A stretch of 41,652 bases of DNA from Chitinophagales bacterium (GTDB lineage Bacteria; Bacteroidota; Bacteroidia; Chitinophagales; CAIOSU01), in contig JBBDNB010000057.1 of NCBI GenBank assembly GCA_040877935.1, positions 86,151-127,802 of the forward strand, read 5' to 3'. Both the position numbers and the translations under genes were made by a program. How positions within the stretch are numbered: the first letter of the stretch is position 1; each line of letters starts with the position of its first letter. Under the pieces are notes generated by a model. That model saw only the letters and a list, made by a program, of their open reading frames with translations. It was not told where the DNA came from and searched no databases. This document shows, piece after piece, positions 3,334-31,071 of this stretch.

Positions 3334-3448
3334 GTTGTTAAAAATTTTGGGTTAAATAAAATGGTGGGAAATAAAAGGATATAGGTCGCCATCAATTTCG
3401 GAACGGCTTCGCTATTTAACTGCTCATTTCCCTGTAAGCAGAAAATAG

Positions 3449-11398: not shown

Positions 11399-12286
11399 TT
11401 ATTTGGGAATGCTAAGTTCTGCTAACAATCCATTCTTCTTAATTATCTCACTTAATTGTGTAAAGGGAATTTCAACTTCGTATGGCAGATAATCGTATGA
11501 TGCATTACTATATATGCTAATTGTAAAAACAACTGACTTAGCTGTAAAGCAGTATGCCTTATTTACAGAAAAAGTTTTTAATTCTGTTGTGCTAAAACTA
11601 CTATTGGAGGTTTTTTGAAAGTATTCTTTTACAAAATCTTTGTAACTCGGTTTTAATATTTTGTTAAGTCCTACGGTATCTAAGTTGTGAATATTTATTG
11701 TAACGCAATGTTCGGTATAAAATGTGATTTTACCATCTGGTGGAATTGATCTGTATATTTTTGTAAAATTAATTATATGATTATTGAGGTAATTTACTCG
11801 AATGAAAGAGGCATTGTGAAATTTTAATGTTTTAGCTTTTTGGGCACTAATAGATTTTGGAAATATCCGATCTAAAGCAATTTCAGGGAATTTTACCTCT
11901 TTAACTTCATAGTTAAATCCAAGACTATTCTCCCAATCAGACTTAGCATTAATCTTGATAAGAGAATTTATTTTTTTTTGAGCAATACTGTCTTTCATTC
12001 CATGAACAGAAGGATATTGATAGATTGATCGATAAAAAAATGGCATCCCAAAATTATCTATTGTTGTGTCTTTCGAATGCATAATAAACGTATTATAATT
12101 TACATTATTTTTTGAATTAAATTGTATTGCTTGATTTTTAATTAATGTTTTATCTTCTTTTTCATCATCAAATAACAAGTAATTACTGAATTTTTTTTTA
12201 GGAAAGTACATTTTCTTAACACTCCAGAATGTCATTGTAATTACTGTAAAGATAATTAAATAAAATATATGTTGTTTTAAAACCAT
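11399..12286 (-). CDS. Membrane-anchored protein of unknown function, last gene of the operon
   Basis: The 295-residue product is not recognised. It has one N-terminal membrane segment (about residues 6-24, HIFYLIIFTVITMTFWSV) followed by a basic stretch, then a largely polar, beta-rich-looking domain of about 260 residues (for example KTLKFHNASFIRVNYLNNHIINFTKIYR as two strands), presumably outside the cytoplasmic membrane. It is 28 bp downstream of the polytopic penicillin-binding protein gene and is the last gene of the minus-strand operon. No lipobox or repeat is seen. It may be a partner of the penicillin-binding protein, but this rests on position only. Confidence 0.65.
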   Translation of the reverse strand: MVLKQHIFYLIIFTVITMTFWSVKKMYFPKKKFSNYLLFDDEKEDKTLIKNQAIQFNSKNNVNYNTFIMHSKDTTIDNFGMPFFYRSIYQYPSVHGMKDSIAQKKINSLIKINAKSDWENSLGFNYEVKEVKFPEIALDRIFPKSISAQKAKTLKFHNASFIRVNYLNNHIINFTKIYRSIPPDGKITFYTEHCVTINIHNLDTVGLNKILKPSYKDFVKEYFQKTSNSSFSTTELKTFSVNKAYCFTAKSVVFTISIYSNASYDYLPYEVEIPFTQLSEIIKKNGLLAELSIPK

Positions 12287-12314
12287 AGTGGTTTAATGTT
12301 TATGTTTTTGTTAA

Positions 12315-15300
12315 TCAGTCTTGAAGCTTATTGTAAATTAATGCAGCTAACGCACCAGCTGTTTTAGCTCCAGATCCAAATGGTATTTCAGGTGTGCCGT
12401 TACATTTTAATTGTTCATTTTCATTCTTGCAATATGAAACCCATGATACGATTAGGGTTTTTCCATCAGATAAAACTGTATAACCGTGTTTTGCTTCGTC
12501 AGATGTTCCTGTCTTAAAATAGTAAGTTTTATCAGTAGGAAGTAAGTCTTTTATGTGTATTCCAGTTCCTTCTGGTTCCATTGCATGACTTAATGCGAGT
12601 TTTATATTGTCAGCATTTGTTCGGTTGTATATCTGTCTGTGCTTTGGTGTAAATATTAAATTTTGGCCAGAAGAATTAAAATAAGAAGAAAAAACAGTTA
12701 GTTGACGATACATTCCTCCATTGAGCAGTACTTGATACATCTGAGCTATATCATACAATGTCATATTTCTAGAGCCAAGAGGGTAGTTTACTTCATATTC
12801 ACCATGCTTGGATTTATTTTTAAAATCAAGGTATGGATCTTTTGAAATATTCATTTCATAGAATTTATTTTCAACTCTTTCAAACAAATATATTGGATTT
12901 ATCAACTCCCTAATATTCACCATTGGAGCATTAAGTGATTGCCTTAATATTTGGGGTATTCCCACGTAATAATTAGAATATACTCCCCTGAAATTTTTAG
13001 GGGTGAGTTTGCCTTTCATATCGCCATCATAAAGGCGGATTTCATCAAAATTCCAACCTTCTTCAAGAAGTTGAATTAATAAGAATGGTTTTATAAGGCT
13101 GGCTATATTGTATCCAGTTCCAAACGATGTTAAGTCAGTTTCACCCCGCCCCCCATAGTGTCCTATTATATTGCCTGTTTTTATGTCAACTACAAGTACA
13201 GCTGAGTATAGGTTATGTTCTTTATTTACTATTTTATTTTCAAACAAAAATTCAAAATTACTGACCGCACCAGCAATTTGTTTCTGGTTTTTAAGAGATA
13301 AAGAACTTATGTAATTGCCTGCTGGATTATTGAAATAATTAATTTCTTTTCGAAGGAATTCATTTGTAGTTGTATGACAATAGCTGTTATATTGCTTGTT
13401 TGCAAACCTCAAATTCTGACTTTTAAGTAGAGCAATGTCTTGCTTTGATAAAAAACCTTGGTTATTCCATGACTCAGCTTTAATCAGTAATGTTTTCTTT
13501 ATTTCTTCGGGATAATATGCAACCTCTGAGTATTTGATGTACCCTTTTGTAGTCTTATATAAAGAGCCGCTTTTAAGGGTAGTAATAAGATACATCATTT
13601 CAAGTTGGTTCAATTCTTTTAATGGTTTTCCAAATGCATAATAAGCTCCATTTATTATACCACAGTGCCCTTTCCCATGAAAGCTCGCCACATTAAGGTA
13701 GAATGTTATAATTTCTTCAGGACTATATTGATTAGAAAGCTGATATGAAGTCAGTATTTCAGCAAATTTCTTTTGAATATCTTGTGGAAATTTACCAAAG
13801 CCAAAGAATCCCTTGTTTTTTATAAATTGCTGATTTAAGTTAGAACCACCACCTTTATCTAAGAAATACCTGTATAGTACTGTAAATGAAAAACCATGCC
13901 AATTTGATCTGTTTGGAAGAAAGTCATTTTGACTTAAAAACCCACGGTCTTCATTAATAATCAAACATTTTAAAAGAAATGGAGGTATCTTAGAATATTC
14001 AACTGCTATACTCGGGTATTCTTTAGAATTATCTGAAAAAAGTAAATTATCATCTTTATCGAAAACCGCATTAACTTCATTATTGTCTGTGAGATTTAAG
14101 GGAATTGGAAAATAAGTAAGCAAAGAACAAATCAGAAATATAGCGCTAATCATTATTCCAACACTTTTTAATAAAGATTTACTGGAATGGAGTAAGTAAA
14201 TAATTATCGGCTGATAAGTAACCTCAGGAGCAGAGAAATTTTTAACTTTTGCGCGTATTAAAGAGATAAATAAGAAGAAAAAATATGTTGAGACTAATAA
14301 TGTAATTAGAAATAATAATGCCATTAGCATTAAAGTCACAAAGAAAAAGAATAGCTTCATTTTAAACACAAAGAATAGCAAACTAACTAATCCCACTACA
14401 TAGTAGAATTTTTTCTCTTTCTCTGGTTTGACGATGTTCATATTTGGGCCTAATTCAGAAGGTCCTTCAACCAGCATAATGACACCTAAATAGTTGAATC
14501 CTTTGGCAAGGTGCAAGCGAAGTAAGAGATAACTAACAATACAAGCAATTATGCCAATGAAACCAATTAGCCAATTGTTTTCATGAAATTGAATACCTGT
14601 AAAAAAGGGCAAATGCAGGATTAATGCGATAATATATACAGTTAAAACTATCCGCCAGGGCGAAAAAACAATCTTTTGGACATATTGCTTCATCTCAACG
14701 TAGTTTAATATTGAGTTCCTGTATTTGTCCACTTTTAAAAGGTTTATGTGTGCCAAGGACAGATAAAAAATACCAAGAGCAATTTTGGATAGCCCCAGAA
14801 AAGTTAGGTGTGCTACCTGAGAAATCATTGGAATGCTTTGGCTGTAGAGCACCAAATCAAGCAAGATGAAAATGATAACAGCAATAAATCCAAAATAAAA
14901 CACATCACTTTCGCTATAGGAAGCCGGATTATTATACTTCTGATTTATTTCGTTCAAGAATTTTCTAACTCCCCTGTAAATAAGATGGACTGCTAAAAAT
15001 TGGATAGCGGGTGTCAATATTAAACCCGATATCAGGTGATTGAATGCGAAAGGGTTTTGAGATTCATTGGAGAAAGAGAAGACCCCTCTTAACAAAATGA
15101 AAAAAGATACCAAATCATCAGACAGAATATATGCTACTAAAGCTATACTAAACTTGTAAAATACAAATCCTGTAACAGCTATAATGGAGATAAAAAATAG
15201 TATTACTACAATAGCCCCAAAATCCACAAATTCTTTTGGGAAACTGATTTTTTTCGTTTTTGACCAGACGAATTGGGAGAGATCAGGGAGCAATTTTATT

Positions 15301-15350
15301 AACGCTGCAATCAAACCTATAAAACTGATAAATGCTAATAAAAATATCAT
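12315..15350 (-). CDS. Class A penicillin-binding protein with a large polytopic membrane domain
   Basis: The 1011-residue protein combines three parts. Residues 1 to about 415 contain roughly 10-12 hydrophobic segments. Residues about 440-600 are a GT51 peptidoglycan glycosyltransferase: INEDRGF (Glu467), GGGSNLNQQFIKNKG (canonical GGSTxTQQ) and YSPEEIITFYLN with GAYYAFGK. Residues about 715-1005 are a transpeptidase with all three motifs: SLIK (Ser751/Lys754), SLN (805-807) and KTGT (946-949). Known class A enzymes have a single membrane anchor, so the polytopic N-terminus is exceptional. The first glycosyltransferase motif lacks the usual downstream His-x-Gly, so polymerase activity is likely but not certain. 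Its ATG overlaps the stop of the upstream VWA-like lipoprotein gene by four bases (ATGA). Role inferred: dedicated, signal-controlled cell-wall synthesis. Confidence 0.88.
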   Translation of the reverse strand: MIFLLAFISFIGLIAALIKLLPDLSQFVWSKTKKISFPKEFVDFGAIVVILFFISIIAVTGFVFYKFSIALVAYILSDDLVSFFILLRGVFSFSNESQNPFAFNHLISGLILTPAIQFLAVHLIYRGVRKFLNEINQKYNNPASYSESDVFYFGFIAVIIFILLDLVLYSQSIPMISQVAHLTFLGLSKIALGIFYLSLAHINLLKVDKYRNSILNYVEMKQYVQKIVFSPWRIVLTVYIIALILHLPFFTGIQFHENNWLIGFIGIIACIVSYLLLRLHLAKGFNYLGVIMLVEGPSELGPNMNIVKPEKEKKFYYVVGLVSLLFFVFKMKLFFFFVTLMLMALLFLITLLVSTYFFFLFISLIRAKVKNFSAPEVTYQPIIIYLLHSSKSLLKSVGIMISAIFLICSLLTYFPIPLNLTDNNEVNAVFDKDDNLLFSDNSKEYPSIAVEYSKIPPFLLKCLIINEDRGFLSQNDFLPNRSNWHGFSFTVLYRYFLDKGGGSNLNQQFIKNKGFFGFGKFPQDIQKKFAEILTSYQLSNQYSPEEIITFYLNVASFHGKGHCGIINGAYYAFGKPLKELNQLEMMYLITTLKSGSLYKTTKGYIKYSEVAYYPEEIKKTLLIKAESWNNQGFLSKQDIALLKSQNLRFANKQYNSYCHTTTNEFLRKEINYFNNPAGNYISSLSLKNQKQIAGAVSNFEFLFENKIVNKEHNLYSAVLVVDIKTGNIIGHYGGRGETDLTSFGTGYNIASLIKPFLLIQLLEEGWNFDEIRLYDGDMKGKLTPKNFRGVYSNYYVGIPQILRQSLNAPMVNIRELINPIYLFERVENKFYEMNISKDPYLDFKNKSKHGEYEVNYPLGSRNMTLYDIAQMYQVLLNGGMYRQLTVFSSYFNSSGQNLIFTPKHRQIYNRTNADNIKLALSHAMEPEGTGIHIKDLLPTDKTYYFKTGTSDEAKHGYTVLSDGKTLIVSWVSYCKNENEQLKCNGTPEIPFGSGAKTAGALAALIYNKLQD

Positions 15351-16129: not shown

Positions 16130-16131
16130 AA

Positions 16132-17430
16132 TTATGAAATTTTGAAATGATTGATAATATCTTTTGTCTCAGGCCATTCAGGTTTGAGGATAGCCTGCTT
16201 TACTGAATCACCTGATAGGATATCCTCATATTCTGCCCTATACTCATCGAACTCGTCCTTTAGGGCAGTAAATAATTCCGTACGTTCGATTTCCTTTGAA
16301 GTGATACTTTGGTCTATTTCTTCTGTCTTTTTCTTTAAGGATTCCAATTTGTCGCTTAAGGGAATCAAATCCTCAGCATTTGTTTTATGATTCTGAATTT
16401 CAGCTTCGATGTTTTCCTTCTTTGTACGGAGGATCTGTACTTCCTTTTTTAACTGCTTCCATTTATTCAGAGCCCAGGCGGTGTCATCTTCTTGAACTGG
16501 GAATTCTTCATCATTCATTTCCTTTTCTACTGTATCTTCCTCCGCTGGCTTACTGAAATAGGGATTTGGTACTATAAAAAAGATGATTAGAAAAAATAGG
16601 ATACCTAGTCCAGCCGGTGCCCATTCCATCTTGCGATATAATTCGACCCATTCTGGGTTCGATATATTGGCAATATTGTCCGCTGGCGCATTGGCCTCGT
16701 CTATTGACCACATGGAAGCATCTGTAGTTTCTGTTTGTTCAGGGTAGATATAATGCAAGGTGGTGGGGGCAAACATCATGATCCCAATCATGAGCAGGAA
16801 GAATCCCATTGCTATATTGTAAATGAGTTTCTTGCTTTTACGGGCCATGTGTGCTACGATATGGAATAGGAGTATCAAAACAAACATAGCAAGTACCCTG
16901 GCACCAATTTCTTCATAGCTCTTTACGTCTCTCAAACTATCAATCTGAGTGATGTAGGTAAAGGCTTCAATTACGATATACATTAAAAATATAGCAAAGG
17001 GTAATACCCATTTTTTCTTTTTTGGCTTTGAGGGTTTTTCCTCTTCTACTTCTTTCTGAGGCTCTTCTTCCACAAGCACCACATCTCTTTTGTCCATGTG
17101 TTCCTTGTGTTGTTCCAGTTCGGATTTCTTCAGTTCCAGCTCTTCTTCAATTCGCTTTAGCTCCTTATCTAATGAGCTGCTTGTTTCATGGTGTCCCTTT
17201 TCAAGCTTTTCGTAGGAAGTGCGGTAATGTAGCATCTCCTGAAAAATGCCATCACGCTCTTCCTCCAAAGACTTAATATCATTGTTGAGCTTACGTATGG
17301 CTTTGTATTTCTCATGCCCCATGATCTTTCCAAGGCCAGGAGTAAAGTGAAATGTGCCATTCTTCCTATAAGGAGCCTGACTCATATCAATATCTTTCTT
17401 CGCAAAGCGGTATTTGTCAAGTTTCAACAT
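16132..17430 (-). CDS. Four-TM coiled-coil membrane protein, unknown
   Basis: The 432-residue protein belongs to no family I recognise. It has a cytoplasmic-looking N-terminal coiled coil (about 40-115, Glu/Lys-rich heptads) and a charged linker. A hydrophobic core of four segments follows (about 141-162, 178-198, 203-224 and 272-290), with an acidic loop between the third and fourth. A second long coiled coil spans about 320-405. The topology puts both coiled coils on the same side, probably the cytoplasm, with the acidic loop outside. It lies 3 bp after the 66-codon gene and 2 bp before the VWA-like lipoprotein gene. A role linking the cytosolic receiver proteins to the envelope enzymes is plausible but inferred. 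Confidence 0.7.
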   Translation of the reverse strand: MLKLDKYRFAKKDIDMSQAPYRKNGTFHFTPGLGKIMGHEKYKAIRKLNNDIKSLEEERDGIFQEMLHYRTSYEKLEKGHHETSSSLDKELKRIEEELELKKSELEQHKEHMDKRDVVLVEEEPQKEVEEEKPSKPKKKKWVLPFAIFLMYIVIEAFTYITQIDSLRDVKSYEEIGARVLAMFVLILLFHIVAHMARKSKKLIYNIAMGFFLLMIGIMMFAPTTLHYIYPEQTETTDASMWSIDEANAPADNIANISNPEWVELYRKMEWAPAGLGILFFLIIFFIVPNPYFSKPAEEDTVEKEMNDEEFPVQEDDTAWALNKWKQLKKEVQILRTKKENIEAEIQNHKTNAEDLIPLSDKLESLKKKTEEIDQSITSKEIERTELFTALKDEFDEYRAEYEDILSGDSVKQAILKPEWPETKDIINHFKIS

Positions 17431-17433
17431 GGT

Positions 17434-17634
17434 TTAATTATTTTGAAGATTAGGTAAAGATGTGCTAGAAGATTTCCGATAGGCGAAATCCAGCAGTGAC
17501 TCTATTCTAGCCCTGACTATATCACGGCTATCTATTCTGTTTGATTGCTGGATTCGAGTTGAGGTCGAAGTCTGCCCTGTTTTTTCTGCCTTATTGGAAT
17601 CAATTGTCTTGGTGAAGATTTCTGTAGGGATCAT
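17434..17634 (-). CDS. Small protein, 66 residues, unknown
   Basis: A short polar protein with no membrane segment. The Ser/Thr/Gln-rich middle (TGQTSTSTRIQQSNRIDSRD) precedes a helix-like stretch (IVRARIESLLDFAY) and a Ser-rich tail. It ends 3 bp before the coiled-coil membrane protein gene and follows another tiny gene by 39 bp. Its in-frame placement in a tight operon on the coding strand favours a real gene, although no family is recognised. It might be an adaptor for its membrane neighbour. Confidence 0.5.
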   Translation of the reverse strand: MIPTEIFTKTIDSNKAEKTGQTSTSTRIQQSNRIDSRDIVRARIESLLDFAYRKSSSTSLPNLQNN

Positions 17635-17673
17635 ATCTTTAGGGTTTGATTACATTTGCGAATATCTATCACA

Positions 17674-17847
17674 TTAAGTTTTCTTAACTTTTCCGTGTGG
17701 AAATTTCTTTTCAGTAAATGCTGTATCCAACAACTGTTTAAGCCCCAAATGCCGTGCACTGGCAATGCGGTTAAACCGAATAATATCAACCTCTCTATTC
17801 AGTGGTGATGGCTTTTCTCTTAAAATATGTTTTGAAGAATAGCTCAT
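17674..17847 (-). CDS. Small basic protein, 57 residues, unknown
   Basis: An ATG-to-TAA frame of 57 codons fills most of the 257-bp gap between receiver protein 2 and the 66-residue gene, leaving 44 and 39 bp on either side. The product is basic (about a dozen Lys/Arg). Its central part, EVDIIRFNRIASARHLGLKQ, looks like an amphipathic helix, and it ends HGKVKKT. It shows no membrane segment or known motif. I call it from the empty same-strand gap in an otherwise gapless operon and its coding-like composition. Homologs in the same position in related operons would settle it. Confidence 0.5.
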   Translation of the reverse strand: MSYSSKHILREKPSPLNREVDIIRFNRIASARHLGLKQLLDTAFTEKKFPHGKVKKT

Positions 17848-17891
17848 CTGAAGGGATTTGATGAGGCAAGTTGGTAAAGCTTAAGCTTTCC

Positions 17892-19874
17892 TCAGTTTTC
17901 TGGAAATTTATCCATGTTACTAATGGACTTCGATATTAGCTCTTTAATGTCGTTTGGATAAGTGTCGAATTCATCAAAAGTCCTCAATATTGATAATTCC
18001 TCAAGCACCTTCTCTCTACTTTCAGGGTGGCTTCTTAAATCTTTGGATGGCGTTTCTTTGATCAATTGTTGTAATACTGAGTTAATAAAGGGCATTTGAA
18101 CGTCTGCATCCCAAAAGTCTTGTGGTTTAGGGTATTTTCTTTTATCAAATGCTTGTCCTCCAGCCTTGCTTATAAGAACCAAGAGGTCATAAATCGTATC
18201 AAGAAGGAAGCTATTTGCTAAATCAAATGACAGGTTTTTAGTTGTTTCTTTTATTCGAATCAATTCCTCATCAAAAAACTGATTGAATTTTAATTTGTGG
18301 CCATTCCCTGTAGAGCTTTTACTGATTGAGAAACCAATTAGTGAACCATACTGACTAAATCTTTTTTTGTCAGTTGAAAACAGAAGGAACCCGCTTTCAA
18401 AATAGCCTTTGTAGTCACTAAAAGCTACTGTTTCCTCCTGAACACCACCATATAGATTTCTGATCCAAAACATACGGTTGATCAACAACTCCTTCAGATA
18501 TGCCAACGATTTCTGAAGAGGCATCTCTGCTATTTCATTTCGCTTATTGACCTGAGGAAAATGAGAATTGATCCTGCCTTTTTTATCCATGACATTTTTC
18601 AGTTTTTCATCAATCTCACTCCACATCTGATCAAATTCCTTTTTCTTATCGGGATCATTTTTCAGTCCATAATAGAACTGTTTTAATCTTCCGCCCCGAC
18701 CACCTTGACGTGAAATATTACCCCACAAAGTGTTAGATGGCCCCCGAAGTTTTTGAAATGTTTGCCTTAAATCAACTTCGTGCTGAATTTCTGTCACCAA
18801 ATCAGAAATAAAATCTGGGTTGCCTTCAAGCAACATGGATTTGTAAACCAAATCAGATACCCTGAGCATATCCCCAAACAACACTTTCAATGCTCTTTTC
18901 GGTAAATGACTTACAACTTTTAATACAATATGTGGATTGTTATCTTTGACATATTCAAGCACATCAATTCCCTGCACGTCCTGATCTAAGTTGTTTGCTT
19001 CTAAAAGTTCCATATCACACATAGCAACACTCACTTGCTCTGCATTATTTTTTAAGTATTCTTTAGCGTCAGCACCATTGGATTTCGTTACTACCTCAAA
19101 ATATGGTTCTAAAAAGCCTTCCATTTTAAAAAGCTGCTCGGTATCATCTTCCAAAAGCAGCAATCGAGGCTTCCAGGATTCAACTTTGTAAGAGTTGCCA
19201 TTTTTACTTTGTCCTTTAATCCCACTTACTTCCCGCATCCTTGAAATCAGTTGTTCATGAAGTCCCCTCCTTTTTTGATGAAAATCGGAAACATTGGTGT
19301 CCTTTAGTACTTCAAGCATTTTACCATCTAAAAGATCAGCATTTGCTCGGATATGTTGAAGTAGGTCTTCAATTTGGTCATCTGAAAGTTTTCTACCCGG
19401 TCTTATGTCATGTTCCAATTTGTCCAAAATCCCCGATTCCGTAAGGCAGTACTTTCTTAGGTACTCAAATTTCCGTTTACTTACGGGAGGCAAGCTTATC
19501 TTACTGAGACTGAAATGTGAACCTATTTTTTCATGCCTAAAGCTTTTAGCAAATACCCTGTTCCTGTTGTTAATTATTTTATACAGCGTTTCTCTTAGCA
19601 GGGTAGAAATAAACAATAAGTTGAAATAAGATTTCAGCTCAACGGCACTCAGAATTTGCTGTGCTACCTGATAGCCATAAAAATCCTGCAAATGCTTTCT
19701 TTCCCAGTCCAGTTCGGCAAGGATGATGACGGCCTCCAAGGTGGCTTTATGCTCTTCAATTTTTGAGAGTTGATCAGTAGATAAGATAAGCGCATCTCCT
19801 TCCTTGTCTGGAAATAAGAATTTTGTTTCCTCATCGAGGATGAAGAGGCGTTTGATTTCGATTCGTTTAGACAT
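17892..19874 (-). CDS. Receiver-domain protein 2 (660 residues)
   Basis: A soluble protein with a CheY-like receiver in the middle. The receiver (about 235-350) has KPRLLLLEDDTEQ (acidic pair at 243-244), the phospho-acceptor segment VAMCDMELLE (Asp287) and a conserved-type Lys345 in DLVYKSML. It is flanked by about 230 N-terminal residues (first strand LFILDEETKFLF, possibly a degenerate receiver) and about 310 C-terminal residues without a recognised output domain. No DNA-binding motif is seen, so it is not an ordinary transcription regulator. It overlaps receiver protein 1 by 8 bp. Together with the kinase-like protein it forms a predicted phosphorelay; its output could be a protein contact with the membrane genes that follow. 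Confidence 0.75.
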   Translation of the reverse strand: MSKRIEIKRLFILDEETKFLFPDKEGDALILSTDQLSKIEEHKATLEAVIILAELDWERKHLQDFYGYQVAQQILSAVELKSYFNLLFISTLLRETLYKIINNRNRVFAKSFRHEKIGSHFSLSKISLPPVSKRKFEYLRKYCLTESGILDKLEHDIRPGRKLSDDQIEDLLQHIRANADLLDGKMLEVLKDTNVSDFHQKRRGLHEQLISRMREVSGIKGQSKNGNSYKVESWKPRLLLLEDDTEQLFKMEGFLEPYFEVVTKSNGADAKEYLKNNAEQVSVAMCDMELLEANNLDQDVQGIDVLEYVKDNNPHIVLKVVSHLPKRALKVLFGDMLRVSDLVYKSMLLEGNPDFISDLVTEIQHEVDLRQTFQKLRGPSNTLWGNISRQGGRGGRLKQFYYGLKNDPDKKKEFDQMWSEIDEKLKNVMDKKGRINSHFPQVNKRNEIAEMPLQKSLAYLKELLINRMFWIRNLYGGVQEETVAFSDYKGYFESGFLLFSTDKKRFSQYGSLIGFSISKSSTGNGHKLKFNQFFDEELIRIKETTKNLSFDLANSFLLDTIYDLLVLISKAGGQAFDKRKYPKPQDFWDADVQMPFINSVLQQLIKETPSKDLRSHPESREKVLEELSILRTFDEFDTYPNDIKELISKSISNMDKFPEN

Positions 19875-22709: not shown

Positions 22710-25578
22710 TGTACCTTCTTGCTGCTTTTAAAAGTTTATAAATATAAAGTTTGCTCCTGTACGTAATCACATATTGATTCACTAATGAGAATGGTAAGTA
22801 GAAAATACGGTCAGGGAGGTTTGATGGTTTGCCCCTTCCGGATATTACTATAAGCTCTGCCTGACCTTTGTCTCCATCGCTGGAATAATTCTCCAGAAAG
22901 GATTGAATGTCTTCCGGCTCTGTTGATTGTTGTATCTTTTCAATAATACCCATATGAATGAGAATATAATCCATATGGACTTTTTTGTCTTCAATCCAGT
23001 CCTTTATTTTATCTGCTAACAATATTTCGTTTCTTAAAACATGAAAACTATTCGCATTAAGGTCTATATTCTGCGAGTTTGGAATATGAACATTCATGCC
23101 ATCAAGAATTATTTGATCATGATTATCGTCTTTGGAAGCATCCGCCTGTATCCGTTCATCAAGTATGCCGACTCTTAATGATGCAGCAAGATTTAATTCA
23201 TGCTTAATTGAACTATTATCTTGATCGGCAATTAATTGTTTAATTTTGGCAGTTGGAGATTGGCTGGAATAGGGTTCATAATAAAAACAATTTTTAGGAT
23301 AATCCGATAAATGCAACTCTGAGTTGTTCAATAGTCTTTCCAAGTGCAAATGGAATATAATCGAGTTTGCTAACCCACTATTTGCGCAATCCGGGAAATT
23401 CTTCTCTCCATCCTTATCTGCATCTAAGAATTTCACCTCTTTCACTTCGTTATTTAATGCATCCAACAACAACCTTAAAATCTCCTGTTCTATATCATCA
23501 TATTTAAGTAGAGATGTCAGTTTTTCTGCTTCTAACTCAAGGTAGCTTTGGTTGCTTCTTACTTTCCTGCCATTAATGATCCCTTTTTCCAATAGCAAAT
23601 AAGGATGACTCACCTCATGACGCTTCCCATCATTTAGCTTTAACTCACCATAAATGAACAAGGCGTCAATATCAGCAATTTGTTGTAGTTCGATAGTAGT
23701 AATACCCAGACTCTGCAGTCGTTCTTGTTCTGTGAACAAATCCGATGGAATGTCCTTCTCAAATATCACACAAGCAAGCTTAGGCTTCAGAAGATAAAAT
23801 TCATAACACAAGTTATTATCATCATCCAGGGTAATGTCAATCAGTTTTTTTTCGGGATTTTCTGTTAAATAATTATCCGAATGGTTCTGATCGATTTGGT
23901 CTAATGGATATTTACGAAGATATGCCGCACAGATTTTCATTTCCAGCAAGCCCCAATCCTTTTGTCTTAACTTACCATTCTCATCCAATACTTTTTTATC
24001 CAATTTTGAATTGAGCCAAGTGTCAATTCTTAAATCCTTGTTTTCTCCATAGGTTTTCTTCTCTCTCTGTTCCTGATTTGCACTTCCCAGATTGTCTTTA
24101 ATAACAACCTTATAATAATCTGGATGATTGAAATTGTTATCCGTACAAATAGTTATTTTTAAGTCCTTATACTTTTCGCCATTACTTACTTTTTCAGGGA
24201 TTGTTGCATGTTTAACTGAATTTCTAATTATGTTCTCAAGAATGACATAAAAAGCTTGTGCCCCTAAAATGTTATTGGGTAGAGCAATTTGAATATCCCT
24301 ATTCCGGAGTTCATGCTCTATTGATATGTTTTGTTGGTTTTCCCATGTCCCATAAGTTACTTCATTAGATCCACTTATATATTTTATTATGTACAATGGC
24401 CAATTACCCTTATTTTCTATTTTTCCAAAAAAGCCATCTAAAACATCCGAAACTAAATTTGCGGAGAAGGTAACCAACGGTTCAGATGTTACAATGTCCG
24501 CAATAAATTCGATGCGTGACTGCAAATAGCGTAAAAAAGAACGAATATCTTCATCGTTAAAACTGGATAGATTAACAAGATTGGCCATCACATGGGAATT
24601 GATATTGTGTGACATTTGGCGGTTCATTATTTGAGAAATAGCAGCCCGCAATGCACTTTTGTAGGCTCTCTCAGCATAAGTATATCCTACCTCAAATAAG
24701 TAATTGTATGTGATATCTTTATTGAGAATAGATAATTCAGGGATGAGAGATTTTAATATTTTGCTACCTATTTCGTTTTTTGTGACCAAATAAATAAACA
24801 GGGCACCTTGTCCGTTATACCCTTCATTAAAATCACCCATTGGGGCACCTAATAACGGGATAGAAATTAGGGTTGTACATTTACTGTCCTTAACTTCATC
24901 TGAGAGTAATTCCTGATCGTACAAATGGTGAAGCAAGAGATGGTTTGGAAGGACCTTTTGGTTTTTGAATTCACGACTCTTTTTAACCATGTAATCATAG
25001 CTGACACCAGATAGTGAAAGATTTTGAACTGAAGTATGCTTGTCTGCTACTGACTTTAGCGGTTTCTTTAAGGAATTGCTTTTTTGATTCGTTACTTCAT
25101 TATAACGGTCAAGGTAGACATTAAATTCATGCTCAACATCTTGTTTAAACACTTCTGTATCTTTAAAACTTGGCAAAACAGTGATATTGGCACTTGCTTC
25201 TTCTGGTGCGATAAAAAATTCAGGCAAATAGTATAAGGATAGTTTAGCTTTAAAAAGTTTAGCAATTATCTCCTCTAATTTATCTGCAAGAGAATCTTGA
25301 GGTAGAACACTTTTCTTTTGCCATAGACATAGGAAAGCAGACAGAGTATTGCTATCAAGGGTGGAGCATAAAGTAGAATATTCAAAGAATAAAGATTCTA
25401 TTTTGACCTCTCCAATTTGCTCTATAATAGTTTCCTTTATAGCGGATAATCCAGAATTGTTGTAAAAGTTGTCCGCAGAAATGGACTCATCGCTACCGTC
25501 AAATGTTCTTGCTTTGGAAAGGTTTACTTTCTTTAACTTTTCTTCCTTCCTCAGAAGCCCGCCTATTCTTGTATCCAT
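22702..25578 (-). CDS. Soluble histidine-kinase-like protein (958 residues)
   Basis: A long cytosolic protein with a kinase core in its middle. The H-box-like segment is QMSHNINSHVMANL (His324 or His329), followed by helices. The GHKL ATPase has an N-box at 448-458 (ENIIRNSVKHA), G1 at 493-498 (IKDNLG) and a G2-like DWGLLEMK (541-548). The N-terminal 300 residues are an unrecognised input region without membrane segments. The C-terminal 350 residues contain two receiver-like alpha/beta stretches (LACVIFEKDIP and RVGILDERIQ with YILIHMGIIEK and AELIVISGRG), apparently lacking a clear acceptor Asp. It lies 3 bp after livK, so ligand sensing through the transporter is an attractive inference. 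Confidence 0.75.
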   Translation of the reverse strand: MDTRIGGLLRKEEKLKKVNLSKARTFDGSDESISADNFYNNSGLSAIKETIIEQIGEVKIESLFFEYSTLCSTLDSNTLSAFLCLWQKKSVLPQDSLADKLEEIIAKLFKAKLSLYYLPEFFIAPEEASANITVLPSFKDTEVFKQDVEHEFNVYLDRYNEVTNQKSNSLKKPLKSVADKHTSVQNLSLSGVSYDYMVKKSREFKNQKVLPNHLLLHHLYDQELLSDEVKDSKCTTLISIPLLGAPMGDFNEGYNGQGALFIYLVTKNEIGSKILKSLIPELSILNKDITYNYLFEVGYTYAERAYKSALRAAISQIMNRQMSHNINSHVMANLVNLSSFNDEDIRSFLRYLQSRIEFIADIVTSEPLVTFSANLVSDVLDGFFGKIENKGNWPLYIIKYISGSNEVTYGTWENQQNISIEHELRNRDIQIALPNNILGAQAFYVILENIIRNSVKHATIPEKVSNGEKYKDLKITICTDNNFNHPDYYKVVIKDNLGSANQEQREKKTYGENKDLRIDTWLNSKLDKKVLDENGKLRQKDWGLLEMKICAAYLRKYPLDQIDQNHSDNYLTENPEKKLIDITLDDDNNLCYEFYLLKPKLACVIFEKDIPSDLFTEQERLQSLGITTIELQQIADIDALFIYGELKLNDGKRHEVSHPYLLLEKGIINGRKVRSNQSYLELEAEKLTSLLKYDDIEQEILRLLLDALNNEVKEVKFLDADKDGEKNFPDCANSGLANSIIFHLHLERLLNNSELHLSDYPKNCFYYEPYSSQSPTAKIKQLIADQDNSSIKHELNLAASLRVGILDERIQADASKDDNHDQIILDGMNVHIPNSQNIDLNANSFHVLRNEILLADKIKDWIEDKKVHMDYILIHMGIIEKIQQSTEPEDIQSFLENYSSDGDKGQAELIVISGRGKPSNLPDRIFYLPFSLVNQYVITYRSKLYIYKLLKAARRYNG

Positions 25579-25581
25579 GAT

Positions 25582-26715
25582 TTAAGGGAATTGAGGTTTT
25601 AAAATGCCGTTTTCATAGTATCCGATCTCGAGGTTTAGCAATAAATCACCATTTTGTTCAAACTTAAATGGTCCTGTAATCCCGTCAAATTCGGATTTTA
25701 ATAGTGCTTTTGTCATCTCATCGTAATTAAAGGGCTTATCCAAATTTTTAGACGCATAATATATTGCTAAAGTTTTATCATAAGCATAGGCATCAGTGTA
25801 GAGCGGCTCACGATTGAATTTTTCTTTAAATCTTTTTCTCCATTCTTTTATTTTCGGGTCATCTTGGTGCATTATAAAATAAGGAACAGTGTATCTAAGT
25901 CCTTCAAGCAAATCATTACTTAGCTCTGGTGCTGCGTCAAGCAAATCGTATGAACAGATCGTATTACCATTCTTAATCAAATTATATGTCCTGAAGTCTT
26001 TTATTAGCTGTATCATGTGGTCTTTAAACCCATTTAAAAGAATCAAATCAGGGTTATAGTCTTTCACTTTTGAAGCTAAAGTCTTAAAATCTGAAGTTGT
26101 GATATCATATCTTTCAATCATTATATCATTAATACCCTGAGATTTTAATCCTGGGGCAACGATTGAGTCAAATTCTGTCTGACATACCTCAATATTCACA
26201 TATACAATGGCCACTTTTTTGGGCTGACGGTGTTTGGCATATTTCAGGTAGTATTCTGTTTCCTCTTTAAAATCAAGCCAAGCCCTAAATGTATTGGGAT
26301 ATTTATCATTGATATATGGAGCATAAACCCATACAAAATGAGGAATTTTTGTTTCGCTAACTAAGTCAATGACTGCCATAGTTTGTGGAGACACTCCCGA
26401 TTCATAAATGTGAGGTTCGTTTAAAATTTGCTTTTGATATATGCTAACTGCGTTTTTAGCTAATCCTCCATTATCTTGAAAATCGAAATTCAGTACAAGT
26501 TTGTTTGTTTTTAAGGAATCAGATAAATCATCAATGGCTAAGTTACTCCCATCTCTTACAGATGTTCCATATGTAGCCAATTCTCCTGTTAATGGTAAGT
26601 TACACGCTATTTCAACTGTCAGGTTATCTGTATCCGTTTTTGAAGACTGACATCCTGAAAAAATCAGGGTAATCATCACCATCAGGCCTACAACACATGT
26701 TTTTAAGTTTTTCAT
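25582..26715 (-). CDS. livK: Liv-type substrate-binding lipoprotein
   Basis: A 377-residue periplasmic-binding-fold type I protein with lipoprotein signal MKNLKTCVVGLMVMITLI and lipobox FSGC. The mature start VEIACNLPLTGELATYGTSV is the hallmark of leucine/urea/amide-binding proteins, followed by IYQKQILNEPHIYESGVSP and VAIVYVN strands and TDAYAYDKTLA near the end. The ATG at 26715 (10 bp after livF) or 26721 is preferred over the longest frame at 26739, because it gives a clean signal peptide. In didermous bacteria it would be membrane-tethered in the periplasm. The substrate cannot be read from sequence; branched-chain amino acids, amides, urea or cell-wall-derived peptides are all possible. 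It is placed between the transporter and the kinase. Confidence 0.88.
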   Translation of the reverse strand: MKNLKTCVVGLMVMITLIFSGCQSSKTDTDNLTVEIACNLPLTGELATYGTSVRDGSNLAIDDLSDSLKTNKLVLNFDFQDNGGLAKNAVSIYQKQILNEPHIYESGVSPQTMAVIDLVSETKIPHFVWVYAPYINDKYPNTFRAWLDFKEETEYYLKYAKHRQPKKVAIVYVNIEVCQTEFDSIVAPGLKSQGINDIMIERYDITTSDFKTLASKVKDYNPDLILLNGFKDHMIQLIKDFRTYNLIKNGNTICSYDLLDAAPELSNDLLEGLRYTVPYFIMHQDDPKIKEWRKRFKEKFNREPLYTDAYAYDKTLAIYYASKNLDKPFNYDEMTKALLKSEFDGITGPFKFEQNGDLLLNLEIGYYENGILKPQFP

Positions 26716-26725
26716 TGTCATTATT

Positions 26726-27490
26726 TTAATTGTAAACAAATTTATTTAAGAAATCCTCTTTTGTATATTCTTTTCGATTTTCAAGCTCAGTAAAATACTT
26801 TTCTTCATGAAACTCTTCTCTGCAATATTTTTTAGTTAAGGTTCCTTTTTTGGTAATAACCACATTAGAAGCCAATTGAAAGGCAACATCCATATTGTGC
26901 TCTACCAATAGCATGGTGATTCCTCGTTCTAGATTGGCCTTTTTTAAAAAATCAGTTGTAAAAGCTACCATCTCAGGTGCCAATCCGGCAGTGGGTTCAT
27001 CTAATAACCAGGTACCAGTGTCCTGCATCAATAAAATGGCAAAGGAAAGCATTTGTCTTTCGCCTCCGCTTAAATTTCCCGCACGCTGTTTTTGCATACC
27101 TCGCAATTTAGGAAATTCATTAAAGGTTTTGTCAAAATGTTGAGATGTAATTTTAATACCATTATAAGAGCCTGCCAGTTCAAGGTGTTCGCGTACGCTA
27201 AGGTCGGGCATAATCAAACCGCCCTGGGCAAAGTAGGAAATATCTTTACTCGGTAGCTGATGAGGAGCAATGTTACTGAAAGATTCTCCCTTAAACTTTA
27301 TTTCCCCTGCTTTTTTTGGTAGCAACCCACACAGCGTTTTTAGCAGGGTGGATTTCCCACTGCCGTTTTGCCCAATCACCGCCAATACCTCACCCTTTGC
27401 CAATTCCAGGTTTACATTTTCAAGTACTGTCAGTTCCGGGTAACCGGCTGCCAGTCCTTGCACCTTTAATATGTTTTCTTGCTCACTCAC
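26726..27490 (-). CDS. livF: Liv-type ABC transporter ATPase LivF
   Basis: A 254-residue ATPase with Walker A GQNGSGKSTLL, ABC signature LSGGERQMLSF and Walker B WLLDEPTAGLAPE, then the H-loop (VEHNM). The order and size fit LivF. The apparent start is GTG at 27490, overlapping livG by 8 bp. The usual LivF C-terminus is extended by a few charged residues (NRKEYTKEDFLNKF). Confidence 0.92.
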   Translation of the reverse strand: MSEQENILKVQGLAAGYPELTVLENVNLELAKGEVLAVIGQNGSGKSTLLKTLCGLLPKKAGEIKFKGESFSNIAPHQLPSKDISYFAQGGLIMPDLSVREHLELAGSYNGIKITSQHFDKTFNEFPKLRGMQKQRAGNLSGGERQMLSFAILLMQDTGTWLLDEPTAGLAPEMVAFTTDFLKKANLERGITMLLVEHNMDVAFQLASNVVITKKGTLTKKYCREEFHEEKYFTELENRKEYTKEDFLNKFVYN

Positions 27491-28193
27491 TTGTCAATAC
27501 TTCTGCTTCAATATGTCCTTTAATAAGTTGAAAAACCGCATCGCTGATTTCTCTTGCTTTTTTGCGGTTGTGCTCCACAAGCAAAATGGTTTTTCCGCTT
27601 TCCTTTAATCGGAGTAGCACCTCTGAAATGCTGTCCACCATTTTGCCGTTTACCCCTGCAAAAGGTTCGTCCAGTAAGAGCAACTCCGCTTCGTTCATTA
27701 GCAACATGCCAATGGACAATAATTTTTGCTGCCCGAAAGATAATGCTCCGGCAGTTTTCTGGAGTTTTCCGGCAAGCCCTATTTCTTTCAAAACCTTTTC
27801 TGCCTTGGCTTTTCGCTCCTTTTCCTCTTGCCAGATTGTTGCTGGCTTGAACAAATAATTCAGAATTCGCTCCCCCGGATGGTTTTTGGTAGCCAACAGC
27901 AGGTTGTCTTCCACGCTGAGGTTTTTAAATACACGTGGGCTTTGCCATACCCTGCCAATTCCCAATTGATCAATTTCTATAGCTGATTTCCCATACAAAT
28001 CCTTGTCGTTAAAGAAAACCTTTCCTGTATCAGGCTTTAGGAAACCGGCTATGATGTGGAACAGGGTAGTTTTACCGGAGCCGTTACCTCCAAAAAGACT
28101 TGTAATACTTCCAGACTCAAGCTCAAATGAAATGTCCTTCAGTACTGTAAGTCCGTTAAAGGACTTGCTGATATGTTTTACGTGTAAAATCAT
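27483..28193 (-). CDS. livG: Liv-type ABC transporter ATPase LivG
   Basis: A 236-residue ATPase with Walker A FGGNGSGKTTLF, signature LSFGQQKLLSIG and Walker B LLLLDEPFAGVNG, plus the H-loop VEHNRKKA. It retains the LivG/LivF pairing expected of the HAAT family. Its ATG overlaps the livM stop by four bases (ATGA). Confidence 0.92.
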   Translation of the reverse strand: MILHVKHISKSFNGLTVLKDISFELESGSITSLFGGNGSGKTTLFHIIAGFLKPDTGKVFFNDKDLYGKSAIEIDQLGIGRVWQSPRVFKNLSVEDNLLLATKNHPGERILNYLFKPATIWQEEKERKAKAEKVLKEIGLAGKLQKTAGALSFGQQKLLSIGMLLMNEAELLLLDEPFAGVNGKMVDSISEVLLRLKESGKTILLVEHNRKKAREISDAVFQLIKGHIEAEVLTSE

Positions 28194-29059
28194 TCAAACT
28201 TGTATTTACCAAAGAAACCGTATGGCCGATACATCACCACCAAAACCAAAATACTGGCATAAATCATCATTCTCAGATTTGCAGCAACGGCATCCGGGAT
28301 ATTTAAAAAGCGGAGTAATTCTGGCAGTAAAATATAAAACAAAGCTCCAGCCAATGACCCCTTGATGGTTCCTAAACCTCCAATCAATACCATGGAAATG
28401 ATAAGAATAGATTCATCCAAAGTAAAAGAGGTTGGATCAATATAACTAAAATAAGTGGCGTAAAGCACTCCTGCAACAGCGGAAAAACCACTGGACAGCA
28501 TTATAGCGACAGTTTTATAGTAAGCTGGGCTTTTCCCAAAAGTCATCATAGCCAATTGATCATCACGCACTCCCTGGAAAAATCTCGAAAGTGGTGTGCG
28601 GTGCAAGCCAATGAAGAATAACAAAACCAATAGCGCAACCACACCACCCAAAATGGCAAAAGAAGGGAGTGAACTAAATGAAAAACCGAATAGCTCTGGT
28701 TTGGGGATGCCGGTAATTCCAAAAGGACCATTGGTAATGCTTGTCCAATTGTAGAGTACGGCAAAAACTATTATCTGCCATGCCAGGGTAGCCAGGGCAA
28801 AAAACAAATCCCTAAGCTTAATGGAAAACCAAACTACTGGCAAACAAGCAACGAGATTGAAAACTATTGCACCTAATAATGCCATAGAAAAAGAAACACC
28901 TGATTTTGTTAGCAATAAGGCTGCGGCATAAGCACCTATGCCGTAAAAGGCTGCCTGTGTTAAAGATAATAATCCTGAGTAGCCAGCCAGCAAGTTCATG
29001 GCCAGGGCAAGAATGAGGTATATCTCAACCATGATCAGTATGTGCAAAAGGTAATTCAT
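28190..29059 (-). CDS. livM: Liv-type ABC transporter permease LivM
   Basis: A 289-residue polytopic permease. Family features are LAMNLLAGYSGLLSLTQAAFYGIGAYAAA near the start, the cytoplasmic coupling segment RDDQLAMMTFGKSP (EAA-like), and VLIGGLGTIKGSLAGA followed by the C-terminal LVVMYRPYGFFGKYKFE. It overlaps livH and livG by four bases each. A decayed copy of its last about 70 bases lies at 37319-37392. Confidence 0.92.
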   Translation of the reverse strand: MNYLLHILIMVEIYLILALAMNLLAGYSGLLSLTQAAFYGIGAYAAALLLTKSGVSFSMALLGAIVFNLVACLPVVWFSIKLRDLFFALATLAWQIIVFAVLYNWTSITNGPFGITGIPKPELFGFSFSSLPSFAILGGVVALLVLLFFIGLHRTPLSRFFQGVRDDQLAMMTFGKSPAYYKTVAIMLSSGFSAVAGVLYATYFSYIDPTSFTLDESILIISMVLIGGLGTIKGSLAGALFYILLPELLRFLNIPDAVAANLRMMIYASILVLVVMYRPYGFFGKYKFE

Positions 29060-29940
29060 TTTTCCTCCACCCGCATTTTAAATGAAACAATACCTTCTGT
29101 TCGCCATAGAATTACCAAAATCAAAAGTAGGAAGGTCATACCTTCTTTCCACTGAGCAGAAATAAACCATTCCGTAGCGGTTTGTAAAAACGCTATTAAT
29201 AGTGAAGCTAGAACGGTTCCTTTTACTGAACCTTTACCACCAATTATCACGGCCACCGCTGCACTTAAGGTAATGGTCATTCCGCGGTGAGGATCCATCC
29301 CTGTGTCAAATAAATGCAGGATTGCAGCAATACCTGCTAAAATACTTCCGATAGCCATTGTCCAAATCCGAATTGCTTTTGTATTTACTCCCAAAACCGA
29401 TGCAACTGTTTCCTCACTGATCATGGCTCTAACTTTTAAAAACCATTTCGTTTTGGTGAAAAGGAGAATACTTCCAATAAGAATCACCGAAACGATTAGC
29501 TGCACCAACTGGATCGGAACAATGGTTAGTCCCACCAAGGAAAAACTGCTGCCTAGATGGGGATCAACGAATTTGGTTTCGTTTCCATAAAGCAAGGCAA
29601 TGAGATTGATAAGGAATATGTAAATGCCCACCGAACTAATCAAAGAAATAGCCTGGCTGGCTTTCTTCTTGGACAAAGGTTGGTAGATCAATTTCTCAAT
29701 CAACACAGCAATTAATGCTATAACAATCAGGCTTCCTGTTAAAGCAAGTACTACAGTTACTGTGTTGCTTACATTGAACATCTCCATAAATTGCAGCAAG
29801 GCATAAGCTCCAATCACATACAAAGCACCATGCGCCAAATGAAATACTTTGGTAGTGTTGAATATCAAGTTGAATCCAACAGCTACTAAAGCCAGCAGAA
29901 AGCCGGTGACTATGGTATTAAATAATAGTTGTCCGTACAT
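29056..29940 (-). CDS. livH: Liv-type ABC transporter permease LivH, first gene of the operon
   Basis: A 294-residue polytopic permease with the LivH hallmarks LVAVGFNLIFNTTKVFHLAHGALYVIGAY, RAMISEETVASVLGVNTKAIRI (coupling loop) and AVAVIIGGKGSVKGTVLASLL. Its ATG is the first of the long minus-strand operon. A 337-bp divergent intergenic region precedes it, so the operon promoter should lie there. Confidence 0.92.
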   Translation of the reverse strand: MYGQLLFNTIVTGFLLALVAVGFNLIFNTTKVFHLAHGALYVIGAYALLQFMEMFNVSNTVTVVLALTGSLIVIALIAVLIEKLIYQPLSKKKASQAISLISSVGIYIFLINLIALLYGNETKFVDPHLGSSFSLVGLTIVPIQLVQLIVSVILIGSILLFTKTKWFLKVRAMISEETVASVLGVNTKAIRIWTMAIGSILAGIAAILHLFDTGMDPHRGMTITLSAAVAVIIGGKGSVKGTVLASLLIAFLQTATEWFISAQWKEGMTFLLLILVILWRTEGIVSFKMRVEEK

Positions 29941-31069: not shown

Positions 31070-31071
31070 TT

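What the first reader, a model, noticed from the sequence alone, without database searches (positions are those of the whole stretch)
11399..29940. Fifteen-gene operon joining a Liv ABC transporter, a soluble phosphorelay and a cell-wall synthase
All 15 genes run on the minus strand, and ten of the fourteen junctions overlap or are only 2-10 nt apart. The order is permeases, ATPases, binding lipoprotein, kinase-like protein, unknown, two receiver proteins, two tiny proteins, membrane coiled coil, VWA-like lipoprotein, polytopic penicillin-binding protein, membrane-anchored unknown. A substrate-binding transporter linked to a kinase with no membrane segments suggests that transporter state is the signal. 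Receivers without DNA-binding domains followed by envelope proteins suggest a direct protein output at the cell wall. I know of no described system with this composition. It could serve nutrient-gated wall growth, wall repair or defence.
Basis: partly seen in the sequence, partly recalled or inferred. Interest (0 to 1): 0.87.

Follow-up and report, generated by a model that had tools for sequence, protein, structure and literature searches.

The report
Modular importer-coupled phosphorelay with toxin-like outputs
This stretch of a Bacteroidota genome carries a rare, apparently undescribed signalling cassette in which a nutrient-type importer with an interchangeable binding protein is linked to a soluble sensor kinase, two response regulators (one ending in an RNA-cutting-like region) and a cell-wall-building enzyme; the same core with swapped parts recurs in unrelated bacteria, sometimes beside anti-phage genes.

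Summary
The 15-gene minus-strand cluster is real and not a one-off. Its kinase family was found at 18 other loci in several phyla, and one more locus (G049) has the cassette with an unrelated protein in the kinase slot. The core is a divergent soluble histidine kinase, a small protein and two paralogous tandem-receiver proteins. An importer lies upstream in 16 of 17 loci with enough sequence, but its class varies (Liv 9, SBP_bac_3 3, NMT1 2, SBP_bac_8 1, MFS 1); 13 of the 16 have a small-molecule enzyme nearby, the window none. Sister kinases carry different importers. LivM proteins 60-82% identical go with binding proteins only 26-34% identical; plasmid control operons keep both in step, but a second variable Liv arrangement does not. 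RR1 ends in a HEPN-like R-x4-H region (7 loci) or PIN-like region (2). A VWA-like lipoprotein plus polytopic peptidoglycan synthase recurs at one other locus, and a different polytopic transpeptidase-like protein at two.
Best reading: a polymorphic importer-coupled two-component stress or defence system with direct protein outputs. Shown: composition, recurrence, kinase and receiver folds. Inferred: ligand, phosphotransfer, RNase activity, defence role.

The parts
29056..29940 (-). LivH-type permease
   Evidence: PF02653 3.2e-33; 80% identical to L013, 62% to locus B
28190..29059 (-). LivM-type permease
   Evidence: PF02653 2.4e-35; 82% to L013, 73% to B; the only match in its own genome at E<=1e-20
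27483..28193 (-). LivG-type ATPase
   Evidence: PF00005 5e-31
26726..27490 (-). LivF-type ATPase
   Evidence: PF00005 9.8e-31
25582..26739 (-). substrate-binding lipoprotein (Peripla_BP_6), proposed polymorphic receptor
   Evidence: PF13458 2.2e-33; 24-31% identical to the binding proteins of the other eight Liv-type loci, even where LivM is 73-82% identical
22702..25578 (-). soluble histidine kinase: variable N-terminal region, DHp with H324 (MSHNI), CA domain, C-terminal DER/IHxG/SGRG domain of unknown role
   Evidence: AlphaFold model residues 310-599 match DHp-CA kinases, Z 11.7 to 4u7o_B; best Pfam E-value among 16 family members 0.012
22005..22709 (-). small soluble protein of unknown fold in a conserved position (S7)
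   Evidence: L011 counterpart by phmmer 5e-24; the S7 profile finds proteins from 11 loci but 10 of these were seeds picked by position; no Pfam
19867..22044 (-). RR1: degenerate N-terminal receiver, canonical receiver (D380, D381, D437, T475, K497), C-terminal HEPN-like helical region with R681-x4-H686
   Evidence: receiver by fold, Z 15.4 to 1m5t over 373-533; residues invariant in three rows; R-x4-H motif
17892..19874 (-). RR2: tandem receiver paralogue of RR1 with a different C-terminal region
   Evidence: RR1-RR2 profile comparison probability 97.8 over 360 columns
17674..17847 (-). tiny ORF, doubtful gene
   Evidence: 57 aa, no Pfam match
17434..17634 (-). tiny ORF, doubtful gene
   Evidence: 66 aa, no Pfam match
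16132..17430 (-). membrane coiled-coil protein, in the place held by DUF4407-type proteins at B and G049
   Evidence: four hydrophobic segments; coiled coil by eye; kinship to the others rests on position only (they were seeds of the profile); B member DUF4407 2.8e-11; 1 of 60 relatives, the own genome
15347..16129 (-). VWA-like lipoprotein (metal-site motif degenerate in the window)
   Evidence: homologue L037:12631-13395, phmmer 1.6e-24; alignment with A, B, L036, L035 proteins keeps one Asp, D41
12315..15350 (-). polytopic class A penicillin-binding protein: ten hydrophobic segments, then GT51 and transpeptidase
   Evidence: motifs EDR467, GGS501, SLIK751, SLN805, KTGT946; 32% identical over 1007 columns to L037:9648-12638
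11399..12286 (-). last gene, unknown function; N-terminal hydrophobic stretch by eye only
   Evidence: sub-threshold DUF3298 0.16; no membrane segment at the scan threshold; no counterpart identified at L037 (E 0.055)
11142..11160 (-). terminator-like hairpin after the last gene
   Evidence: such hits are not above chance

Best explanation
A polymorphic, importer-coupled two-component system. Step 1 (inferred): the lipoprotein binding protein, delivering its ligand to the Liv permease, is the outermost sensor; in most relatives a linked enzyme (PLP enzyme, methyltransferase, SDR, radical SAM and so on) makes or modifies that ligand. Step 2 (inferred): import, or its product, changes the variable N-terminal region of the soluble kinase. 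Step 3 (folds shown, transfer inferred): the kinase autophosphorylates at H324 and passes phosphate to the receivers of RR1 (D437) and RR2. Step 4 (inferred): phospho-RR1 switches on a C-terminal HEPN-like RNase, stopping growth, while the receivers act on the membrane coiled-coil protein, VWA-like lipoprotein and polytopic peptidoglycan synthase to halt or remodel the wall. The role is probably stress or defence (competitor, lysis or phage alarm), not routine nutrition.
For: Recurrence of importer, kinase and receivers in unrelated genomes. Kinase and receiver folds. Importer differs between well-supported sister kinases: W(Liv)/L011(SBP_bac_8) 100/100, L013(Liv)/L017(SBP_bac_3) 100/99, L015(none seen)/L018(MFS) 100/100. 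Binding protein decoupled from permease: 26-34% in all 6 system pairs with LivM >=60%, against 56-98% in the 5 plasmid control pairs with LivM >=62% and 81 and 96% in two chromosomal pairs. In one case the binding protein follows the enzyme: G049 and B share a PLP enzyme (44%) and have binding proteins 50% identical with LivM 51%, while B and W have LivM 73% and binding proteins 29%. Effector-like outputs: R and H of R-x4-H are two of only three invariant columns in six RR1 C-termini, again in G049; receiver-adenosine deaminase fusion in L024 (1.1e-36) and receiver-HerA/TrwB-like fusion in L021. VWA-like lipoprotein and polytopic PBP in the same order in W and L037. Known defence genes beside A, L018 and L022.
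Against: HEPN is motif-level: only locus A gets sub-threshold HEPN-type hits (DUF4145 6.1e-4, RiboL-PSP 0.0056); W's own C-terminus has none, a PDB profile search gave nothing convincing and an hhalign test against three DUF4145 ORFs failed. W lacks a linked enzyme; L012's importer is about 6 kb from the kinase with other genes between; no importer was seen in 23 kb upstream of the L015 kinase. Decoupling of binding protein and permease is not unique: of five chromosomal control pairs with LivM >=60%, three (L078-L079 99/34, L078-L080 66/37, L079-L080 67/34) are also decoupled; they come from a second variable Liv arrangement without a kinase match. Kinase N-termini of W and L012 are related although importers differ. 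The protein in the kinase slot of G049 has no match to the kinase profile. Kinship of the small protein and the membrane coiled-coil protein across loci rests mostly on position. Defence neighbours were picked by eye, without a background control. No expression or biochemical data.
Confidence: 0.48

Rival explanations
1. Cell-to-cell (kin or quorum) signalling: the linked enzyme makes a strain-specific amino-acid-like signal, the matching binding protein and importer take it up, and the phosphorelay gates growth arrest or wall changes by density or kinship.
For: Enzyme and binding protein go together in B and G049; several enzyme classes suited to small-molecule making lie beside different importer classes; binding protein diversification.
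Against: W, L012 and L024 have no enzyme that I recognised; I noticed no linked exporter (not searched for); toxin-like receivers are more than quorum sensing needs.
Confidence: 0.25
2. Nutrient-gated wall growth: Liv flux reports amino-acid supply and the relay tunes a dedicated peptidoglycan synthase.
For: Transporter-linked kinases are known in principle (Pst-PhoR, BceAB-BceS, recalled; 8g3a BceAB-S is among the kinase fold matches, Z 8.1); PBP motifs intact; two different polytopic wall-enzyme types (W/L037 and B/G049) end the clusters.
Against: The kinase is absent from the 59 relatives compared (one of them, G049, has the cassette with another protein in the kinase slot) and present in 4 of 395 genomes of the phylum, unlike a housekeeping circuit; importer class interchangeable; wall enzyme seen at 4 of 20 loci.
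Confidence: 0.15
3. The cluster is two or more independent islands placed side by side: a Liv-kinase-receiver unit and a separate envelope unit.
For: Gaps of 44 and 39 nt and two doubtful ORFs separate the halves; no wall enzyme was seen near most relatives; at L015/L037 the PBP cassette is on the opposite strand to the kinase, about 11 kb away.
Against: A membrane coiled-coil and/or VWA-like protein follows RR2 in W, A, B, L018, L023 and G049; the window-type PBP N-terminus was found in no searched genome lacking the kinase (1 of 395, 1 of 295).
Confidence: 0.15

Closest known systems
Transporter-coupled two-component systems (Pst-PhoU-PhoR, BceAB-BceS; recalled)
   Same: An ABC transporter is encoded with and may inform a histidine kinase.
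   Different: Kinase is soluble and matches no Pfam model, receivers have no DNA-binding match, binding protein and importer class are swapped between relatives, toxin-like and wall-synthase parts are included.
VWA/MoxR/VMAP ternary and related conflict systems (Kaur et al. 2020, PMC7159879; 2021, PMC8195603; passages seen)
   Same: VWA proteins, receiver domains and peptidoglycan-linked domains in modular operons with swapped effectors.
   Different: [quoted passage not shown] here a kinase is the core, and Pfam scans of the window genes list no MoxR or VMAP.
RADAR RdrB and other deaminase effectors (recalled)
   Same: L024 has an adenosine deaminase fused to a receiver.
   Different: Fusion to a receiver downstream of a kinase; I did not search that locus for RdrA.
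Class A penicillin-binding proteins
   Same: GT51 plus transpeptidase with intact motifs.
   Different: About ten membrane segments precede the enzyme in place of the usual single anchor (usual form recalled).

Membership tests
Two-component histidine kinase | DHp-CA fold | tested here: met
   Z 11.7, rmsd 4.2, 203 residues aligned to 4u7o_B; the listed rows are histidine kinases, phytochrome and PDHK-type relatives
Two-component histidine kinase | phosphoacceptor His and N-box Asn | tested here: met
   M-[SM]-H-N-[IM] found in all 13 kinases scanned and in 3 of 5 split upstream halves, the other two carrying it in the downstream half; N449 and R452 invariant in 16 rows
Two-component histidine kinase | autophosphorylation and phosphotransfer | not testable with these tools
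   needs protein assays
Response regulator receiver | CheY-like fold with DD/D/T/K residues | tested here: met
   RR1 Z 15.4 to 1m5t, 120 residues; D380, D381, D437, T475, K497 invariant in 3 rows
HEPN ribonuclease | R-x4-6-H motif | tested here: met
   six aligned RR1 C-termini and G049 RNQASH; not in L012, L018, L013
HEPN ribonuclease | significant match to a HEPN profile or fold | tested here: inconclusive
   A: DUF4145 6.1e-4, below cut-off; W, B, L017, L021, L023: none; PDB profile none convincing; helical C-terminus in the model
PIN nuclease (L012, L018 RR1) | significant match to a PIN profile | tested here: inconclusive
   hhalign vs 12 PIN_3 proteins probability 11, E 0.0028, controls E 0.15-0.7; Pfam and PDB none
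Class A PBP | GT51 and transpeptidase with catalytic motifs | tested here: met
Class A PBP | single N-terminal membrane anchor | tested here: not met
   ten hydrophobic segments by Kyte-Doolittle
Liv-type ABC importer | two permeases, two ATPases, Peripla_BP_6 binding protein | tested here: met
Known anti-phage system (PADLOC-DB 2.0.0) | profile match of operon proteins | tested here: not met
   8 operon proteins: best SduA 2.1e-05, on the receiver part of RR1 only
VWA domain | DxSxS metal site | tested here: not met
   present in the A, B, L036 and L035 proteins; degenerate in W and L037

The most novel reading that the evidence does not exclude
A previously undescribed class of bacterial immune or kin-recognition receptors: extracellular small-molecule sensing by interchangeable importer/binding-protein/enzyme sets, transduced by a dedicated soluble histidine kinase family to receiver-gated RNases (HEPN, PIN), nucleotide deaminases and a private peptidoglycan synthase. 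It would be an immune-type system whose sensor is a transporter and whose specificity evolves by swapping the binding protein on a conserved permease.
Probability: 0.33. Interest if true: 0.92.

Novelty: new variant of a known kind. Interest (0 to 1): 0.78.

Why it matters
If right, it joins two fields: transporter-coupled two-component signalling and modular conflict systems. It predicts RNase and deaminase effectors switched by aspartate phosphorylation, gives a natural set of binding proteins whose ligands can be found by mass spectrometry, and offers a rare case where a peptidoglycan synthase may be under direct phosphorelay control. Binding-protein swapping on a conserved permease would be a readable record of changing ligands.

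Tried and rejected
Rejected or uninformative: plasmid tblastn of the kinase gave no match; plasmid tblastn of the PBP matched 16 records, the five listed covering only the enzyme part at 23-24% identity; viral-contig scans with the PBP and kinase alignments gave no relatives, so I have no evidence of phage carriage. Rfam: only a cobalamin riboswitch outside the cluster. hhalign of the HEPN-like set against three DUF4145 ORFs, two of them fragments, failed (probability 0.1); S7 against the kinase C-terminal domain or receivers gave nothing, so I dropped the idea that S7 is a receiver relative. Locus B's 1156-aa protein: Pfam sub-threshold only (Peptidase_S11 0.0023, Transpeptidase 0.038) and no relevant PDB match; with G049 it keeps SxxK, KTGT, SD(F/Y)...FG and PLTGQS(I/L)P, which I recall as transpeptidase- and SEDS-like motifs, so 'SEDS-PBP fusion' is motif-level. 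VWA profile against PDB gave no VWA chain. Prevalence by the kinase profile is a lower limit: it missed the G049 locus, found only through its LivM, and the large scan used one peptide pattern. The literature term 'iREC' returned unrelated papers.

Controls: of 12 chromosomal Liv stretches fetched, seven had a binding protein (21 pairs); L076, L077, L081, L084, L086 had none. L078-L080 proved to be a second variable Liv arrangement and L076 carries a VWA-type lipoprotein beside Liv on a short contig. Of 13 plasmid stretches 11 were used, 55 pairs; L089 and L099 were dropped (no annotation and no usable pair); the 49 pairs with LivM <=41% have binding proteins at 23-31%. On recount three control pairs, not one, are decoupled, and kinship of S7 and the coiled-coil protein rests on position; I lowered the best explanation from 0.50 to 0.48 and the novel case from 0.35 to 0.33.
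Full report
Observation. The fifteen minus-strand ORFs exist at the stated coordinates. Eleven of fourteen junctions overlap or lie within 3 nt. The importer is a complete Liv-type set; the 1011-aa protein is a GT51-transpeptidase enzyme with about ten membrane segments. The kinase-like and receiver proteins have no membrane segment by hydropathy. The two tiny ORFs are doubtful.

Kinase and receivers. AlphaFold models (mean pLDDT 60 and 62, better in the cores) place kinase residues 310-599 on DHp-CA histidine kinases (Z 11.7) and RR1 residues 373-533 on receivers (Z 15.4). Among 16 kinase members the best Pfam E-value is 0.012, so the family is not catalogued there. RR1 and RR2 are paralogues with tandem receiver-like halves; iREC (inactive receiver) profiles touch the N-terminal half in two RR1 members, A at 3.4e-05 and L018 at 5.4e-04, both under Pfam's score cut-off.

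Recurrence. The kinase was found in 1 of 60 relatives (the own genome), 3 of 395 genomes of the phylum with the single protein and 4 of 395 with the profile. One scan of 84,980 genomes gave 16 loci, L026 being the already known B: Bacteroidota, Chitinivibrionales, KSB1, Nitrospira, Clostridia, Cloacimonadota, Brocadia and an archaeal MAG by record title. I count 20 loci: the window (W), A (G094), B (G337), L011-L025, G281 and G049. G049 was found through its LivM, and the protein in its kinase slot does not match the kinase profile. Pairwise searches tie RR1 in 10 loci (W, A, B, L012, L016, L017, L018, L021, L023, L025) and RR2 in 12 (W, A, B, L011-L015, L017, L018, L021, L023); G049 has both. 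The small protein S7 is mostly assigned by position.

Inputs. L014, L016 and L025 are too short upstream to judge. Of the other 17, 16 have an importer upstream: Liv 9 (W, A, B, L013, L019, L020, L024, G281, G049), SBP_bac_3 type 3 (L017, L021, L022), NMT1 type 2 (L012, L023), SBP_bac_8 with an ATPase 1 (L011; its membrane protein has no Pfam match), MFS 1 (L018); none was seen at L015. L022 is placed by 57% identity of its permease to L021's; in L012 about 6 kb of other genes separate importer and kinase. Thirteen of the 16 have a small-molecule enzyme beside the importer: PLP (A, B, G049), SAM methyltransferase (A, L017, L021, L022, L023), N6-methylase-like (L019), SDR (B; L011 by a 5e-06 match), radical SAM (L013, L020; G281 by eye only), AlaRS-like (L020), KAS III (L018); W, L012 and L024 have none that I recognised.

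Swapping. In the kinase tree three sister pairs with 99-100 support carry different inputs; none of the six rows is among those flagged as long branches. Liv parts do not travel as one: W and L013 have LivH/M/G/F 80/82/76/66% identical but binding proteins 26%; W and B 62/73/59/59 and 29%. All six system pairs with LivM >=60% have binding proteins at 26-34%. Plasmid Liv operons keep step: LivM 99/90/84/82/62/47 with binding protein 98/89/87/84/56/43. Chromosomal controls are mixed: two pairs keep step (81/81, 95/96) and three, all among L078, L079 and L080, do not (99/34, 66/37, 67/34). Those three belong to a second variable Liv arrangement, with different binding-protein and membrane-protein genes beside near-identical permeases in L078 and L079 and no kinase match. 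So decoupling marks variable Liv loci, of which this system is one. B and G049 share a PLP enzyme (44%) and a polytopic transpeptidase-like protein (37%) and have binding proteins 50% identical: in this one case the binding protein follows the enzyme more than the permease, hence the inferred enzyme-ligand-receptor set. Kinase N-termini are related within the SBP_bac_3 group (E 7e-51 to 1e-21) and between W and L012 (4.5e-13); no other pair scores below 0.1.

Outputs. In six RR1 C-termini only three columns are invariant, R, H and I, and R and H form R-x4-H; G049 adds RNQASH. L012 and L018 have instead a region with IDTN and other PIN-like features; profile support is weak. L024 has a receiver fused to adenosine deaminase (1.1e-36) and L021 a receiver fused to a HerA/TrwB-like ATPase. 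Such domains are known from conflict systems (established knowledge). HEPN and PIN are motif-level here.

Envelope part. The VWA-like lipoprotein and polytopic PBP recur in the same order at L037, about 11 kb from the L015 kinase and on the other strand; the membrane protein before them is like W12 only in position (E 0.049). The polytopic N-terminus was found in 1 of 395 genomes of the phylum and 1 of 295 of the order of G450, each time with this kinase nearby. B and G049 have at the end of the cluster a different polytopic protein with a transpeptidase-like end. VWA-like proteins also occur at A, B, L036 (L021) and L035 (L024); tubulin-like proteins (Tubulin_2) at L035 and G281. The wall synthase is an optional but repeated output.

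Neighbourhood. Of ten neighbours chosen by eye from seven loci, strong PADLOC matches came from A (type I REase 1.1e-83), L018 (HmaB 4.8e-121, HmaC 1.7e-120, PDC-S68 6.1e-277), L022 (pAgo 1.6e-234, 87 bases before the binding protein) and L017 (PDC-S01 1.1e-186); the L012 and B neighbours gave none; the window's 32.8-kb gene gave 9.8e-06 and its Schlafen-HATPase gene at 36.0 kb 2.7e-16 to an Argonaute-associated model. A BREX survey reports Schlafen RNases fused to a minimal histidine kinase as widespread in such loci (PMC12839542, passage seen). There was no random control, so this is suggestive. None of eight operon proteins is a catalogued defence protein.

Literature. Eight searches found no description. 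I saw search listings and passages of PMC13092281, PMC7159879, PMC12839542 and PMC8195603, no whole paper. Kaur et al. describe receivers in VWA conflict systems without histidine kinases, the nearest published theme.

Verdict. The cluster is a recurring, modular importer-coupled phosphorelay with toxin-like and wall-synthesis outputs. It belongs to two-component signalling by tested folds but differs from described systems in composition. A role in defence, kin sensing or wall control is inference; I put defence or stress alarm first.

Noticed in passing
window 36000-37313: Schlafen AlbA_2 plus HATPase_c_4 gene on the minus strand, a type linked to defence loci, about 6 kb beyond the cluster; PADLOC 2.7e-16 to an Argonaute-associated model.
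   Followed up: partly
window 3440-3657: Cobalamin riboswitch (RF00174, 105 bits) on the minus strand.
   Followed up: no
window 30278-32233: Three plus-strand genes without Pfam match next to livH, divergent from the cluster.
   Followed up: no
L078, L079, L080, L103: A second variable Liv arrangement (binding protein, other genes including a membrane protein, then LivH and LivM) without a kinase match; L078 and L079 have LivM 99% identical but different binding and membrane proteins.
   Followed up: partly
L035:5103-8219 and L032:1386-4334: Tubulin-like (Tubulin_2) proteins near the L024 and G281 kinase loci, at L035 beside a VWA protein.
   Followed up: no
L024:18230-21099: Receiver fused to adenosine deaminase (A_deaminase 1.1e-36).
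   Followed up: partly
L015:7620-9137: BspA-type leucine-rich-repeat protein directly upstream of a kinase of this family, where others have an importer or enzyme.
   Followed up: no
L020:6196-8829: AlaRS-like class II synthetase gene followed by a B12-binding radical SAM gene between Liv importer and kinase.
   Followed up: no
L022:86-2104: Prokaryotic Argonaute directly upstream of an importer-kinase cassette on the same strand.
   Followed up: no
L102:r13744-15525 (reverse-complement coordinates): 593-aa protein without kinase-profile match in the kinase slot of an otherwise typical cassette in the window's own order.
   Followed up: partly
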